DNA of 64,000 bases, from positions 458,001-522,000 of the forward strand of contig NZ_CP010401.1 in NCBI RefSeq assembly GCF_001281405.1, given 5' to 3'. This DNA comes from Bartonella ancashensis (GTDB lineage Bacteria; Pseudomonadota; Alphaproteobacteria; Rhizobiales; Rhizobiaceae). Of this stretch, positions 20,411-29,567 are shown one piece after another (position 1 is the stretch's first letter; the number at the start of each line of letters is the position of its first letter). A program made the position numbers and the translations under genes. A model generated the notes under the pieces. That model ran no database searches and was not told the origin of the DNA. It saw nothing but the letters and a program-made list of their open reading frames with translations.

Positions 20411-21307
20411 TCAGCTTTGCAAACGTCGACAAATATCATCCAATTGTTCCAACGTAGAATAACGAATTTTTAAATTTCCCCCTTTTTTGCCATGATTAAT
20501 AACAACCTGCGCCCCGATTATATCAGAAAGTATTTTTTCCAAAGACTCTGTTTCTACGTCTTTTTCTTTTATTTGCTTTTTGTTTCCAATATTTTCCTTT
20601 TCATGTACAAGCATCTCTGTTTGACGTACAGAAAGCCCTTCCTGAATTATTTTTTCAGCCAATTTTTGTGGATCATCAACAGTTATGAGACAACGTGCAT
20701 GGCCAGCTGAAAGCTGACCATTAATTAAAAATTGCTGTACTTCCGATGGAAGTTTCAACAAACGAAGCGTATTAGCAATATGGCTTCTGCTTTTTCCAAT
20801 AATTTGAGCAAGATCGTTTTGAGTATAAGAATGTTCATTAATTAGCAATTCATATCCCATGCCTTCTTCAACAGGATTGAGGTCTGTACGTTGAACATTT
20901 TCAATTATTGCTAATTCAATGGCTGTTTTATCATCTACATCACGAATTATAGCAGGCAATCTATTTAATTCTGCTCTTTGTGCAGCACGCAACCGACGCT
21001 CACCAGCAATTAGTTCAAACTGATTTGGATGATTACGCAAAGGCCTTACAACAATAGGCTGTATAATACCATGTTGACGGATAGACTGAGCTAAATTATC
21101 AAGTTCTGAATCAGTAAAATGTCTTCGCGGATTATTTGGATTGCATGAAATAAGATCTATAGAAATTAGTTTTTCAAAATTCTCTCCTGATTTTGCAATA
21201 AATTGGGGAATATTAGATTGATCGGTATGACTAACATCTAAATTGATATCTCCAATCAATGCGGCTAACCCACGCCCTAATCTTTTTTTAGATTGATCTT
21301 CATTCAT
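20411..21307 (-). CDS. parB: Chromosome partitioning protein ParB
   Basis: CTP-dependent DNA clamp that loads at parS and spreads, working with ParA to segregate new origins. It has 298 residues from the ATG at 21307; the frame also extends to a GTG at 21328, but homologues begin with a short basic tail before KKRLGRGLAALIGD, which favours the ATG. The CTP-binding motif GERRLRAAQRA and the preceding NPRRHF segment are in the N-terminal domain. The HTH region (YTQNDLAQIIGKSRSHIANTL) is central and a C-terminal dimerisation domain ends the protein. parA lies 25 to 45 bases upstream. Two parS-like sites occur nearby, at 22736 and 24765. Confidence 0.96.
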   Translation of the reverse strand: MNEDQSKKRLGRGLAALIGDINLDVSHTDQSNIPQFIAKSGENFEKLISIDLISCNPNNPRRHFTDSELDNLAQSIRQHGIIQPIVVRPLRNHPNQFELIAGERRLRAAQRAELNRLPAIIRDVDDKTAIELAIIENVQRTDLNPVEEGMGYELLINEHSYTQNDLAQIIGKSRSHIANTLRLLKLPSEVQQFLINGQLSAGHARCLITVDDPQKLAEKIIQEGLSVRQTEMLVHEKENIGNKKQIKEKDVETESLEKILSDIIGAQVVINHGKKGGNLKIRYSTLEQLDDICRRLQS

Positions 21308-21352
21308 AATCTTGCTCTTTGAATTCACTGTATACCAAATTATTTAACATTT

Positions 21353-22150
21353 TTAGGCAGCGTCTTTTGCTTGTTTTTCACGTTGAATAACTTCTGATGC
21401 TAACCGCAAATACGCCTGGCTACCCGCACATTTAAGATCGTAAAGCAATGCTGGCTTACCAAAGGAAGGGGCTTCAGATACCCTAACATTTCGTGGAATA
21501 ACAGTACGATAAACTTTTTCCCCCATAAAAGAACGCACATCTTCAACAACTTGATTTGAAAGATTATTACGTCCATCATACATAGTTAAAACAATACCCT
21601 GAATATCAAGAGATGGATTAAGAACACATCTTACTTGTTTAACAGTTTCAAGTAATTGACTTAATCCCTCAAGAGCTAAAAATTCACATTGCATAGGAAC
21701 TAAGACAGAATCAGCAGCTCCCATAGCGTTTAATGTTAAAAGATTTAATGAAGGAGGACAATCTATAAGAACATAATTAAATCTCTGAGCAATCTTTTTA
21801 TCATGACAAAGGGCATTCCGTAACCGTTTAATACGGTCTGCGGATGAAGCAATTTCCATCTCAATACCAAGAAGATCTAAAGTTGAAGGAACAATATATA
21901 AATTAGGAACGAGCGTTCTTAAAGCAGCTTTAGCAACTGAAATTCCAGATACTAAAACATCATAAGAAGATAAAGGACGATTGTTACGATCAATTCCTAA
22001 TCCTGTACTAGCATTACCTTGTGGATCAACATCCATAATAAGAACGTTTTCGCCAATTGCAGCTAAAGCTGTAGCAAGATTAATAGTTGTTGTTGTTTTA
22101 CCTACCCCACCTTTTTGGTTTGCAACGGCGATAATCCGTGTTTCGCTCAT
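21353..22150 (-). CDS. parA: Chromosome partitioning ATPase ParA
   Basis: Walker-type ATPase that forms the nucleoid-bound gradient moving ParB-parS complexes. It has 265 residues. The deviant Walker A is KGGVGKTTTT near residue 13, the A' motif is MDVDPQGNAS, and Walker B is VLIDCPPSL. The short N terminus (SETRIIAVANQ) marks it as a chromosomal (Soj-type) ParA, not a plasmid type with a DNA-binding N-terminal domain. It follows rsmG by 6 bases in the usual mnmG-rsmG-parA-parB order. Confidence 0.97.
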   Translation of the reverse strand: MSETRIIAVANQKGGVGKTTTTINLATALAAIGENVLIMDVDPQGNASTGLGIDRNNRPLSSYDVLVSGISVAKAALRTLVPNLYIVPSTLDLLGIEMEIASSADRIKRLRNALCHDKKIAQRFNYVLIDCPPSLNLLTLNAMGAADSVLVPMQCEFLALEGLSQLLETVKQVRCVLNPSLDIQGIVLTMYDGRNNLSNQVVEDVRSFMGEKVYRTVIPRNVRVSEAPSFGKPALLYDLKCAGSQAYLRLASEVIQREKQAKDAA

Positions 22151-22156
22151 TTGATC

Positions 22157-22804
22157 TTATCCTTCACAAGATTGAACATGAGAAATTTCTAAAATAACAG
22201 AGTTTTTATCAATTTTACTTTGATGTTTTAATAAATCAAAACGCCAATTTTTAGAAGCATTTTCTATTTCTTTACCATAATATTGACCCTTTTGTAAAAG
22301 AGCTATTGTATTTTGTGAAAATAACGGAAAAGAAATTTTTAAAAGATGATCTAACGGTGCTAAACCACGTGCAGTTATAATATCAGGACTATTTATTTTA
22401 TTGTAAACATTTTCTATTCTACAATTATAAACAGTTGCTGGAAGATCAAGTTGAGCAATAGCAGTTCTTAAAAAAGACGCTTTTTTCATATTGCTCTCAA
22501 CTAAATCAATGTGTCCTTTTTTCATATGCTTAAGAAATATAGCAATCACAATTGCAGGAAATCCTCCTCCTGATCCAAGATCACACCAGTGAATAGCTTG
22601 GCTATGTAGAGGATATATCTGAGCAGAATCTAAAATATGACGAGTCCATAGAACCGGTATCGTTTTTTTTGATATGAGATTAATATGTAAATTCCATTGA
22701 ATAATAAGCTCTTCAAATCTTTTTAGATCATTTACAGTTTCACGTGAAACAGACGGTAATATTTCAGATAATTCTATGTATCTTTTTTCTAATTCCGCAA
22801 TCAT
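22157..22804 (-). CDS. rsmG: 16S rRNA (guanine527-N7)-methyltransferase
   Basis: SAM-dependent methylation of G527 of 16S rRNA. It has 215 residues with the SAM motif DLGSGGGFPAIV near the middle and the N-terminal segment VSRETVNDLKRFEELI. The codons for VSRET contain a near-perfect parS palindrome (22736-22751), as is known for this gene in other alphaproteobacteria. Its start codon overlaps the mnmG stop (TAATG), so the two are coupled. Confidence 0.96.
   Translation of the reverse strand: MIAELEKRYIELSEILPSVSRETVNDLKRFEELIIQWNLHINLISKKTIPVLWTRHILDSAQIYPLHSQAIHWCDLGSGGGFPAIVIAIFLKHMKKGHIDLVESNMKKASFLRTAIAQLDLPATVYNCRIENVYNKINSPDIITARGLAPLDHLLKISFPLFSQNTIALLQKGQYYGKEIENASKNWRFDLLKHQSKIDKNSVILEISHVQSCEG
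22736..22751. other. parS: parS centromere-like site inside rsmG
   Basis: A 14-bp perfect palindrome GTTTCACGTGAAAC lies within the 16-base site AGTTTCACGTGAAACA, one mismatch from the consensus ParB site TGTTTCACGTGAAACA. It is about 1.4 kb upstream of parB, on the origin-proximal side. Confidence 0.9.
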
Positions 22805-24764: not shown

Positions 24765-24780
24765 TGTTTCACGTGAATCA
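24765..24780. other. parS: parS-like site between mnmG and mnmE
   Basis: TGTTTCACGTGAATCA matches the consensus ParB site at 15 of 16 positions. It ends exactly at the base before the mnmE stop codon. It is the second parS candidate in 2 kb and lies about 3 kb from the proposed replication origin. Confidence 0.85.
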
Positions 24781-26119: not shown

Positions 26120-27385
26120 CTATGTATTCATTGAATCAAAAAATTCGCTATTGTTCTTTGTTTGCTTTAATTTATCAATTAAAAATTCCATAGCATCTGT
26201 TACATTCATAGGTGATAAAATACGACGTAGAACAAAAATTTTATGTAAGTCTTGACGTGATACTAATAAATCTTCTTTCCGCGTTCCAGATTTCAAAACA
26301 TCTATAGCTGGGAAGATACGTTTATCCGAAACTTTTCTATCAAGAACAATCTCTGAATTCCCTGTTCCCTTGAACTCTTCGAAAATAACTTCATCCATAC
26401 GACTTCCCGTATCAATTAAAGCTGTTGCTATAATAGTAAGGGATCCGCCTTCTTCAATATTACGAGCTGCACCAAAAAAGCGTTTAGGACGCTGTAAAGC
26501 ATTTGAATCAACTCCTCCTGTTAAAACTTTACCTGATGAAGGAACAACCGTATTATACGCTCGTCCAAGACGAGTAATCGAATCAAGAAGGATAACAACA
26601 TCACGTCCATACTCAACCAAACGCTTGGCTTTTTCTATAACCATTTCAGCTACTCGTACATGACGAATTGCTGGTTCATCAAAAGTAGAAGAAATAACCT
26701 CTCCTTTTACAGAGCGTTGCATGTCTGTAACTTCTTCCGGACGTTCATCAATCAGGAGAACAATGAGATAACACTCAGGATGATTTGTCGTAATCGAATG
26801 AGCTATATTTTGTAATAGTACCGTTTTTCCTGTTCTAGGAGGTGCAACAATTAATCCTCTTTGTCCTTTTCCTAAAGGAGACATTAAATCAACAATTCGT
26901 GAGGACAGATCCTTATAAGTAGGATTTTCTATCTCCATTTTAAAAGGTTCATTCGGATAAAGAGGGGTAAGATTATCAAAATGAATTTTATAACGAATTT
27001 TTTCAGGCTCTCCAAAATTTATTTTATTAATTTTGAGAAGAGCAAAATACCGTTCTCCCTCTTTTGGACTACGTATTAGACCCTCAACAGTATCTCCTGT
27101 TTTCAAAGAAAAAACCTGTATTTGTTCAGGTAAAATGTAAATATCATCAGGTCCTGGTAGATAATTTGCATCTGAAGATCTTAAAAAACCAAATCCATCT
27201 TGTAAAACTTCGACAACACCTTCTCCAATAATTTCTACATCTTGCAAAGAGAGTTTTTTCAGAATAGCAAACATTAATTCTTGTTTACGCATTAGCGAAG
27301 CATTTTCAACCTTTAACGTCTCAGCAAAAGATATAAGTTCGACAGGAGTTTTTCTCTTGAGTTCTTGTAGCTTCATTTCTTGCAT
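26120..27385 (-). CDS. rho: Transcription termination factor Rho
   Basis: Hexameric RNA helicase that ends transcription at rut sites. It has 421 residues. The N-terminal RNA-binding domain begins with [13 protein letters not shown] and contains the cold-shock-like GFGFLRS segment. The ATPase domain has the P-loop VAPPRTGKT, Walker [11 protein letters not shown] and the Q/R loops ([13 protein letters not shown]). It is the last leftward gene before the proposed origin; in many alphaproteobacteria heme genes separate rho from the origin, but here nothing does. Confidence 0.97.
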
Positions 27386-27670
27386 GAAATACTCTCTTAA
27401 AAAATATAAAGTGGGAAATTATTTTCAAATCTATAGAAAATCGGGAAATAAGAATTATTTCCTACAATACAGAGAGACCACCATACACTTAACTTCTTTG
27501 ATCTGCAAGGGTCACCTTTACACTCAATTTTTCCACAAAACACAAATTACTTTTAGTAGTGTAAAAACCCGTCTCAGCATACTAAATAACTGAAACTCTT
27601 TTGGTTCTACCTTTTATAAGAATCATTCTCTTCTCAACACAAAATTAAAGATAAACGAATTTTGATTCAT

Positions 27671-27696
27671 TTAAACCTTAATTAATTAAGTTTTAA
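27671..27696. promoter_or_regulatory. Tandem CtrA boxes in the origin region
   Basis: Three TTAA half-sites start at 27671, 27682 and 27693. Each adjacent pair gives the full CtrA consensus TTAA-N7-TTAA, and the 11-base period puts all three on the same face of the helix. In Caulobacter CtrA binds such boxes in the origin and blocks replication. The region is AT-rich, so chance TTAA words are common, but the exact double spacing is less expected. Confidence 0.6.
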
Positions 27697-27749
27697 AGTT
27701 TTTTCTTATTTAGGTATGTGTTTAATGTTAATTGTTATTTGTACCCTAA

Positions 27750-27876
27750 TTATCCATATATTTTTATCACAAAAAGAGATAGAAAAAGTTATGAATTAGA
27801 GATAGTTAGAGGTGTTATCCTCATCTTTTGTTCACATAGCAAATTCATTAACAAAAATTATTCCATTTGTGCATAA
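27750..27876. promoter_or_regulatory. Cluster of DnaA-box-like sites
   Basis: Within 127 bases: TTATCCATA (27750-27758), TTATCACAA (27764-27772), TTATCCTCA (27815-27823), TTGTTCACA (27828-27836) and, on the minus strand, TTATGCACA (27868-27876). The last matches TTATNCACA exactly; most of the others are one base off the consensus, TTATCACAA being weaker. Weak boxes are usual in alphaproteobacterial origins. Confidence 0.6.
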
Positions 27877-27959
27877 ATAAAAAAATAAAACGTAATATTT
27901 TATTTTTCTGAAAAATAAGAAACTTTGTACACACCTATTAACAAATCGTAAAAATTTTG

Positions 27960-28802
27960 ATGGAAAAAAGAAAAAAAATATTTCATTTGCATATGGTTTC
28001 TGATGCAACTGGTGAGACTTTAATATCTGCGGGGAGAGCCGTATCATCACAATATACCATGTGTCAGGCTGTAGAGCATATTTACCCAATGATTCGAAAT
28101 AAAACACAATTACAGAGAGTTCTTGATGAAATTAAAAGGGAACCAGGAATTGTACTCTACACAATTATTGATAAAGAGCTTAAACAACGTCTCAGTAAAA
28201 CATGCGTAAAGATAGGTGTGCCTTGTGTTGCTATATTAGATCCAATCTTAAATGTTTTTCAATCATATATAGGAACACCTACTAATTTGCGTGTCAGTGC
28301 ACAACATGACCTTAATGCAGATTATTTTCGTCGTATTGAAGCATTGGATTTTACGATAGAACATGATGATGGACAATTTTCTGATGATTTACTAAATGCT
28401 GATGTGATTCTTGTAGGAATATCAAGAACTTCAAAAACACCAACAAGCATTTATTTAGCAAATCGTGGAATAAAAACGGCCAATGTACCGGTCATCCCAG
28501 GAATTGATTTGCCACGGGCTCTTTTGGAAGAAAAAAATATCTTAATTATTGGCTTAATTGCTTCAGCTGAACGTATTGCACATGTTCGTCAGAATAGAGA
28601 CTTAGGGAATTGTTCCGCTATAGAAAGCTACACAGACAGAGTAAGTATAGCTGAAGAATTAACTTATGCAAAACGGATCTTTGAGAATTCAGGTTGGCCT
28701 ATTATAGATGTTACAAGACGTTCAATTGAAGAAACTGCAGTAGCAGTCTTTGAGCTTTTATCACAATTTCGTGAGGAAAAAGAAAAAGATCATGAAAAAT
28801 AA
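27960..28802 (+). CDS. ppsR: Pyruvate,phosphate dikinase regulatory protein (RP001/DUF299 family)
   Basis: Bifunctional serine/threonine kinase and pyrophosphorylase that switches pyruvate,phosphate dikinase (or PEP synthase) off and on. It has 280 residues from the ATG at 27960; a TTG immediately before it could also be used. HLHMVSDATGETL near the N terminus and the P-loop GISRTSKTPTSIYLA are the family signatures. There is no clear Shine-Dalgarno sequence before the start. This family is the RP001 gene that flanks the origin in several alphaproteobacteria. It overlaps maf by 11 bases. Confidence 0.92.
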   Translation: MEKRKKIFHLHMVSDATGETLISAGRAVSSQYTMCQAVEHIYPMIRNKTQLQRVLDEIKREPGIVLYTIIDKELKQRLSKTCVKIGVPCVAILDPILNVFQSYIGTPTNLRVSAQHDLNADYFRRIEALDFTIEHDDGQFSDDLLNADVILVGISRTSKTPTSIYLANRGIKTANVPVIPGIDLPRALLEEKNILIIGLIASAERIAHVRQNRDLGNCSAIESYTDRVSIAEELTYAKRIFENSGWPIIDVTRRSIEETAVAVFELLSQFREEKEKDHEK

Positions 28803-29385: not shown

Positions 29386-29567
29386 TAATAGATTATACAA
29401 AAGAGAAAAGTTAATCTGTACTATTTCATGTTCTATTTATCATTTAAATTTATGAAAAATATTGGTTTTTATCTTAAAATAGGAAAAATATGCAAAGTGA
29501 GTTATCTGAATCTTACAAAGATTTATCAATATCCTATTTTATAGTAAAGTGTAGGTTAAAATAAGTT

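What the first reader, a model, noticed from the sequence alone, without database searches (positions are those of the whole stretch)
27386..27959. Probable chromosomal origin with an in-phase triple CtrA half-site array
Seen: a gene-free AT-rich gap at a strand switch, TTAA at 27671, 27682 and 27693 (two overlapping TTAA-N7-TTAA boxes with one-turn spacing), and at least six DnaA-box-like words, one exact (27868). Known: alphaproteobacterial origins lie beside the RP001-type gene, and CtrA binds TTAA-N7-TTAA in the Caulobacter origin. Inferred: CtrA represses initiation here too, so a heme-auxotroph-like intracellular lineage would keep a Caulobacter-type replication switch.
Basis: partly seen in the sequence, partly recalled or inferred. 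Interest (0 to 1): 0.8.

Follow-up and report, generated by a model that had tools for sequence, protein, structure and literature searches.

The report
Bartonella chromosome replication origin
This gap is very probably where this Bartonella-type bacterium starts copying its chromosome, but the three evenly spaced TTAA words that caught the eye are not shared by its relatives, so they are weak evidence for control by the cell-cycle protein CtrA.

Summary
The origin reading holds: GC skew turns from minus to plus here and nowhere else sampled, DnaA-like boxes exceed shuffles (7 against 1.03), and a core of fixed words is conserved in 36 aligned Bartonella gaps. The CtrA reading is weaker. The box conserved in the genus lies just before the PPDRP start (35 of 37 gaps), and this genome has lost half of it. 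Passages on S. meliloti and B. abortus report no CtrA binding at the origin. The array lies in the least stable 80 bp of the gap, so it is most simply AT-rich unwinding DNA. In a sister clade hemE lies between rho and the origin; hemE is absent here. New member of a known kind.

The parts
27386..27959 (.). chromosomal origin region: intergenic gap between divergent rho and PPDRP genes
   Evidence: GC skew sign change
27671..27696 (.). TTAA-N7-TTAA-N7-TTAA array of the finding (with two more TTAA words inside); not conserved in relatives
27658..27738 (.). least stable 80-bp stretch of the gap, candidate unwinding element; contains the array (with 50-bp windows the minimum is 27873-27923 instead)
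   Evidence: nearest-neighbour stability scan
27717..27735 (.). conserved block; TGTGTTT (27717-27723) identical in 36 of 36 aligned rows; contains a reverse DnaA-box-like word (TTAAACACA)
27728..27742 (.). place aligned with the full TTAA-N7-TTAA of the hemE-keeping sister clade; here TTAA-N7-TTGT
27529..27537 (+). DnaA-box-like TTTTCCACA (1 mismatch), outside the conserved core
27750..27758 (+). DnaA-box-like TTATCCATA (1 mismatch); commonest form in the aligned rows TTATCCTCA
27815..27823 (+). DnaA-box-like TTATCCTCA (1 mismatch); TTAT identical in 36 of 36 rows, each of the next two C in 35 of 36
27828..27836 (+). DnaA-box-like TTGTTCACA (1 mismatch)
27868..27876 (-). exact DnaA box TTATGCACA; TGTG and ATA of its plus-strand form identical in 36 of 36 rows
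27925..27933 (+). DnaA-box-like TTGTACACA (1 mismatch)
27938..27952 (.). start-proximal TTAA-N7-TTAA place of the genus; here TTAACAAATCGTAAA: second half changed, and the AAGGAG between the halves lost
27480..27508 (-). probable rho promoter (TTGCAG, 17 bp, TATGGT); conserved in outline, judged by eye
26120..27385 (-). rho, left boundary gene
27960..28802 (+). PPDRP, kinase/pyrophosphorylase PF03618 (RP001/COG1806 type), right boundary gene
20411..22150 (-). parB and parA
22736..22751 (.). parS-like 16-mer, 1 mismatch to a recalled consensus
24765..24780 (.). parS-like 16-mer, 1 mismatch to a recalled consensus

Best explanation
The gap is the chromosomal origin (oriC) of a Bartonella species. 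DnaA binds a cluster of boxes whose conserved core, with near-fixed spacing, runs from 27717 to about 27944, and the AT-rich DNA at its left edge (27658-27738) is the likely place of strand opening. The TTAA array lies in that AT-rich edge and is most simply a lineage-specific product of its composition, not a kept CtrA operator. Shown: skew switch at sampled resolution, box cluster, conservation of the core, non-conservation of the array, presence of ctrA. Inferred: DnaA binding, the site of unwinding, and the absence of a CtrA function for the array.
For: GC skew is negative in the samples left of the gap and positive or near zero right of it as far as about 1.03 Mb, then negative again; no other minus-to-plus switch appears among 34 sampled stretches (20 of 10 kb, 14 of 5 kb) plus the window. 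The cumulative-skew minimum of the window is at 27677; values within 3 counts of it run from 27635 to 27962. DnaA-like boxes 7 against 1.03 in shuffles. Core spacing from TGTGTTT to TTATCC, TGTGCATA and TTAACAA is +98, +151 and +221 here; 31 of 36 rows lie within 3 bp of this (one of the 31, L051, lacks the TTATCC word) and five are 10-14 bp shorter. rho-gap-PPDRP order in the 36 named loci that hold both genes, of 38 fetched. Array not conserved: a triple in 2 of 37 gaps, at different places; N7 pairs 13 against 13.4 +/- 3.7 in shuffles once the last 45 bases of each gap are removed. Least stable 80 bp of the gap is 27658-27738.
Against: The exact N7-N7 triple has P 0.005 in shuffles of this gap and occurs nowhere else in the genome; over the 37 gaps two triples stand against 0.34 expected. 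So chance is not compelling by number alone. No other strain of this species was at hand, so conservation within the species is untested. In 9 of 35 alphaproteobacteria outside the genus a full TTAA-N7-TTAA lies within 500 bp upstream of the same gene: 10 sites, other spacers 0-2, 0.33 expected from shuffles (36 loci, one later dropped). So CtrA-type boxes near this gene are a theme of the class. With 50-bp windows the least stable DNA of the gap lies at 27873-27923, not at the array, and some places elsewhere in the window are less stable still. No IHF site fitted either pattern tried. Replication itself was not measured.
Confidence: 0.85

Rival explanations
1. The array is a working CtrA operator: phosphorylated CtrA binds two overlapping TTAA-N7-TTAA boxes on one face of the helix at the unwinding edge and blocks initiation, as in Caulobacter.
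For: CtrA is encoded and passes the NCBIfam CtrA model (412 bits, cut-off 350), with a ChpT-type gene beside it and a SciP-type gene near. The triple is unique in the genome, P 0.005. CtrA-spaced boxes recur upstream of this gene in 9 of 35 alphaproteobacteria outside the genus.
Against: No triple at this place in any of the other 36 gaps, B. bacilliformis (L031) included. N7 pairs at shuffle level over the 37 gaps away from the gene start. S. meliloti CtrA is reported not to bind the origin (passage, PMC4433202), nor B. abortus CtrA (passage in PMC2877005 citing earlier work).
Confidence: 0.12
2. CtrA acts at Bartonella origins through the start-proximal site (27938-27952), as a repressor of PPDRP or of initiation; in this genome that site has decayed. 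This is compatible with the best explanation.
For: A full TTAA-N7-TTAA in the last 60 bases before PPDRP in 35 of 37 gaps, spacers 3-12 other than 7 giving 0 except one N11; TTAACAA identical in 36 of 36 aligned rows.
Against: In the hemE-keeping sister clade the same place has no TTAA words (ATCAACAAGG...GTGAA in L020, L022, L023; ATCAACAACC in L018, L019), so the AACAA core is older than the TTAA form. A ribosome-binding word lies between the half-sites and may explain part of the conservation.
Confidence: 0.25
3. The skew switch is real but initiation starts at another place near it, and the gap is only a regulatory region.
For: Skew resolves the origin only to some kilobases.
Against: The box cluster and the conserved core are in the gap, and origins of other alphaproteobacteria are placed beside the same kind of gene (passages, PMC1914354).
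Confidence: 0.04

Closest known systems
Caulobacter crescentus origin (Cori) and Rickettsia prowazekii origin, hemE-COG1806 type
   Same: Gap beside the COG1806/PF03618 gene, DnaA boxes, TTAA-N7-TTAA words, ctrA in the genome (Cori as described in passages of PMC1914354)
   Different: hemE absent, rho is the left neighbour; no IHF pattern found; the CtrA-type array is not conserved
Origins of other Bartonella species; for B. quintana an oriC predicted by program at the skew switch is already in print (passages, PMC11091102)
   Same: Gene order and a core of near-fixed spacing
   Different: This genome lacks the intact start-proximal TTAA-N7-TTAA and has a private TTAA triple
   Same: mnmG-mnmE-rho ... 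origin ... PPDRP-maf order and the TGTGTTT block
   Different: rho-PPDRP distance about 2.1 kb in 4 of 4 loci that span it, with hemE (PF01208) and a UPF0093 gene in the one whose genes I named, L128; a full TTAATTATTTATTAA in 5 of 5 loci with a long upstream stretch
Sinorhizobium meliloti origin
   Same: Same order as Bartonella (recalled); CtrA present in the organism
   Different: Reported without CtrA motifs and not bound by CtrA (passage, PMC4433202)

Membership tests
alphaproteobacterial chromosomal origin (RP001/COG1806-linked) | GC skew changes sign at the site and at no second minus-to-plus place | tested here: met
   34 sampled stretches plus the window, not the whole genome
alphaproteobacterial chromosomal origin (RP001/COG1806-linked) | PF03618/COG1806 gene at the boundary | tested here: met
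   PF03618 287 bits
alphaproteobacterial chromosomal origin (RP001/COG1806-linked) | hemE at the other boundary (usual, not universal) | tested here: not met
   PF01208 has no match in the genome; rho is the neighbour. A sister-clade locus has hemE there, so this reads as loss
alphaproteobacterial chromosomal origin (RP001/COG1806-linked) | cluster of DnaA boxes | tested here: met
   7 with at most one mismatch against 1.03 in shuffles
alphaproteobacterial chromosomal origin (RP001/COG1806-linked) | initiation of replication at the site | not testable with these tools
   needs marker-frequency sequencing or origin mapping
Caulobacter-type CtrA-repressed origin | CtrA encoded | tested here: met
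   NF045991 412 bits, cut-off 350
Caulobacter-type CtrA-repressed origin | several CtrA sites kept by selection in the origin | tested here: not met
   the array is private to this genome among the gaps seen; the genus-wide site is half lost here
Caulobacter-type CtrA-repressed origin | IHF site in the origin | tested here: not met
   no match to WATCAANNNNTTR or WATCAN5WTR in the gap, either strand; patterns are crude
Caulobacter-type CtrA-repressed origin | CtrA binds the origin and blocks initiation | not testable with these tools
   needs footprinting or ChIP

The most novel reading that the evidence does not exclude
CtrA sites at the Bartonella origin turn over: the sister clade has one place (aligned with 27728), the other Bartonella another (27938), and this lineage, after losing half of the second, has built a new three-half-site array at the unwinding edge, so that CtrA control persists although no single site does.
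Probability: 0.1. Interest if true: 0.55.

Novelty: new member of a known kind. Interest (0 to 1): 0.28.

Why it matters
It places the origin of a Bartonella chromosome in a gap of about 570 bp, gives a genus-wide core with its spacing, and shows that an eye-catching CtrA-like array can be private to one genome. Whether CtrA touches Bartonella origins at all becomes a question for one in vitro footprint, with the start-proximal site of the genus as the better target.

Tried and rejected
Considered and dropped: (1) the array as a conserved CtrA operator; (2) enrichment of TTAA as a word in the gap (12 against 12.6); (3) IHF sites (none found); (4) dnaA as a landmark: it lies about 129 kb away.

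Rows and limits. The alignment over the array is unreliable, so its non-conservation rests on pattern scans of each gap, not on the alignment. L060 and L065 show no rho in the locus and are in no gap count. L057 counts among the 37 gaps as a stretch of 269 bases whose rho start was extrapolated; it was left out of the alignment (36 rows, own included) and. In one search L108 was cut at a contig end and wrongly placed; it was dropped. Of 89 genomes with the gene only the 30 best came as loci; 28 of these (own L107 and L108 left out) plus the 7 same-order loci make the 35. The downstream control is weak, since it is poorer in TTAA (11 words against 51 upstream). Of the six PF00486 matches I scanned two against NCBIfam; the CtrA one passed, the other did not.

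Papers. Searches: of which I saw the listings. I saw passages of PMC1914354, PMC2877005, PMC4433202, PMC2697382, PMC11091102, PMC5156944, PMC8116508 and PMC6899734 and read no paper whole. Nothing that I saw there describes CtrA binding at a Bartonella origin; most subscription papers are not in that library.

Full report
What is there. The window lies at 458001-522000 of a single-contig genome of 1,467,695 bases. Among the named loci its PPDRP protein is closest to that of Bartonella bacilliformis Ver097 (82% identity); all 38 loci of that call bear Bartonella titles. The gap 27386-27959 is 25% GC and separates rho (minus strand) from a PF03618 gene (plus strand), the RP001/COG1806 type. Left of rho lie mnmE, mnmG, rsmG, parA and parB; right of PPDRP lie maf, coaE and dnaQ. 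Pfam backs rho, PPDRP, mnmE, mnmG, parA, parB and coaE; rsmG, maf and dnaQ are named by eye.

The origin. GC skew was sampled in 20 stretches of 10 kb over the genome with six pieces of the window, and in 14 further stretches of 5 kb near the far switch. It is negative in every sample from 1.04 Mb through the end and start of the contig to 485 kb, and positive or near zero in every sample from 486 kb to about 1.03 Mb. Inside the window the cumulative minimum is at 27677, by chance or not within the TTAA array; values within 3 counts of it run from 27635 to 27962. No second minus-to-plus switch appears in what was sampled. Two parS-like words lie within 5 kb. Seven words with at most one mismatch to the DnaA box stand in the gap against 1.03 expected; 0 of 1000 shuffles reached seven.

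Conservation. Of 38 named Bartonella loci, 36 show both rho and PPDRP; with the window this gives 37 gaps, of which 36, own included, were aligned. Identical in all 36 rows: TGTGTTT (27717-27723), the TTAT of 27815, TGTG and ATA of the exact DnaA box at 27868, and TTAACAA (27938-27944). From TGTGTTT the words TTATCC, TGTGCATA and TTAACAA lie at +98, +151 and +221 in this genome; 31 of 36 rows lie within 3 bp of that (L051 lacks the TTATCC word), and five rows (L039, L043, L046, L048, L058) are 10-14 bp shorter. This core of about 230 bp is the best candidate for the DnaA-binding part.

The TTAA array. But the triple occurs in only 2 of 37 gaps, this one and L034, at different distances from the gene. 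With the last 45 bases of each gap removed, TTAA-N7-TTAA occurs 13 times against 13.4 +/- 3.7 in shuffles, while the N10 spacer occurs 14 times; triples are 2 against 0.34 expected. In 61 genomes of the genus the triple occurs 47 times, in 36 of the 61. For the 24 same-genus relatives, none of their 19 triples lies within 10 kb of the PPDRP gene where that was placed; in G003 the gene was not found, and G003 has no triple. For this gap alone the triple has P 0.005, or 0.035 if any equal spacer of 4-9 is allowed; the shuffle ignores local AT content, so chance is if anything underrated. Genome-wide there are 67 TTAA-N7-TTAA sites, two of them these overlapping ones. The least stable 80 bp of the gap, 27658-27738, contains the array, but with 50-bp windows the minimum is 27873-27923. 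In the genus the flank left of the core is on average the least stable part, and 32 of 36 rows have their 80-bp minimum left of TGTGTTT.

Where CtrA could act instead. Ten full TTAA-N7-TTAA sites lie within 500 bp upstream of PPDRP in 9 of 35 alphaproteobacteria outside the genus; other spacers from 3 to 12 give 0-2, and the 500 bp downstream of the gene give none at any spacer, though that side has fewer TTAA words (0.33 sites expected from shuffles, summed over 36 loci before L108 was dropped). The other 26 of 35 have none. In Bartonella a full site stands in the last 60 bases before PPDRP in 35 of 37 gaps, commonly TTAACAAGGAGTTAA over the probable ribosome-binding word. The two exceptions are this genome (TTAACAAATCGTAAA) and L061. 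In a hemE-keeping sister clade that place has no TTAA words, while a full site TTAATTATTTATTAA stands in 5 of 5 loci with a long upstream stretch and aligns with 27728 here. So CtrA-type boxes are a theme of the locus in the class, but no site is shared by both parts of the genus, and this genome has neither of the two clade-wide sites intact.

CtrA in the genome and in the literature. CtrA is present (NF045991, 412 bits, cut-off 350; its receiver domain matches PDB 4qpj, named CtrA), with a PF10090 (ChpT-type, name recalled) gene beside it and a PF06627 (SciP-type, name recalled) gene about 1.1 kb beyond it. In S. meliloti the origin is reported to lack CtrA motifs and not to be bound (passage of PMC4433202). 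For B. abortus, binding to several promoters but not to the origin is reported (passage of PMC2877005 citing earlier work). Cori has five CtrA sites, five DnaA boxes and one IHF site (passages of PMC1914354). I saw no statement on CtrA at a Bartonella origin in the searches named in Tried and rejected.

The heme remark. In the sister clade rho and PPDRP lie about 2.1 kb apart in 4 of 4 loci that span the stretch. In L128, the one whose genes I named, a UPF0093 gene (hemJ type, recalled) and hemE (PF01208, 387 bits) lie between rho and the origin. In this genome PF01208 has no match, and rho borders the origin.

Verdict. A well-supported origin of a known kind; a real but private TTAA array; CtrA control of initiation here is possible and unproven, and the array is not the place that the comparison points to.

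Noticed in passing
G000 485.7 kb and about 1.03-1.04 Mb: The plus-to-minus skew switch lies near 1.03-1.04 Mb, so the two arms from the origin are unequal, about 0.55 and 0.92 Mb. A rearrangement around the origin is reported for B. bacilliformis (passage).
   Followed up: partly
L128:4700-6276 against window 27385: A UPF0093 gene and hemE lie between rho and the origin in a sister-clade genome; hemE has no match here and rho abuts the origin.
   Followed up: yes
27945-27948: The ribosome-binding word AAGGAG before PPDRP, present in most aligned rows, is AAATCG here and AAGACG in B. bacilliformis L031.
   Followed up: partly
29386-29567: In L128 an aroE gene lies between maf and coaE; here only 182 bases remain, while L031 and L048 have about 870 and 650 bases there.
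   Followed up: no
27737-27747: Five aligned rows lack the same 11 columns, about one helical turn, inside the otherwise fixed core.
   Followed up: partly
G000 whole genome: TTAA-N7-TTAA is rarer (67 sites) than the reversed control AATT-N7-AATT (144); unexplained.
   Followed up: no
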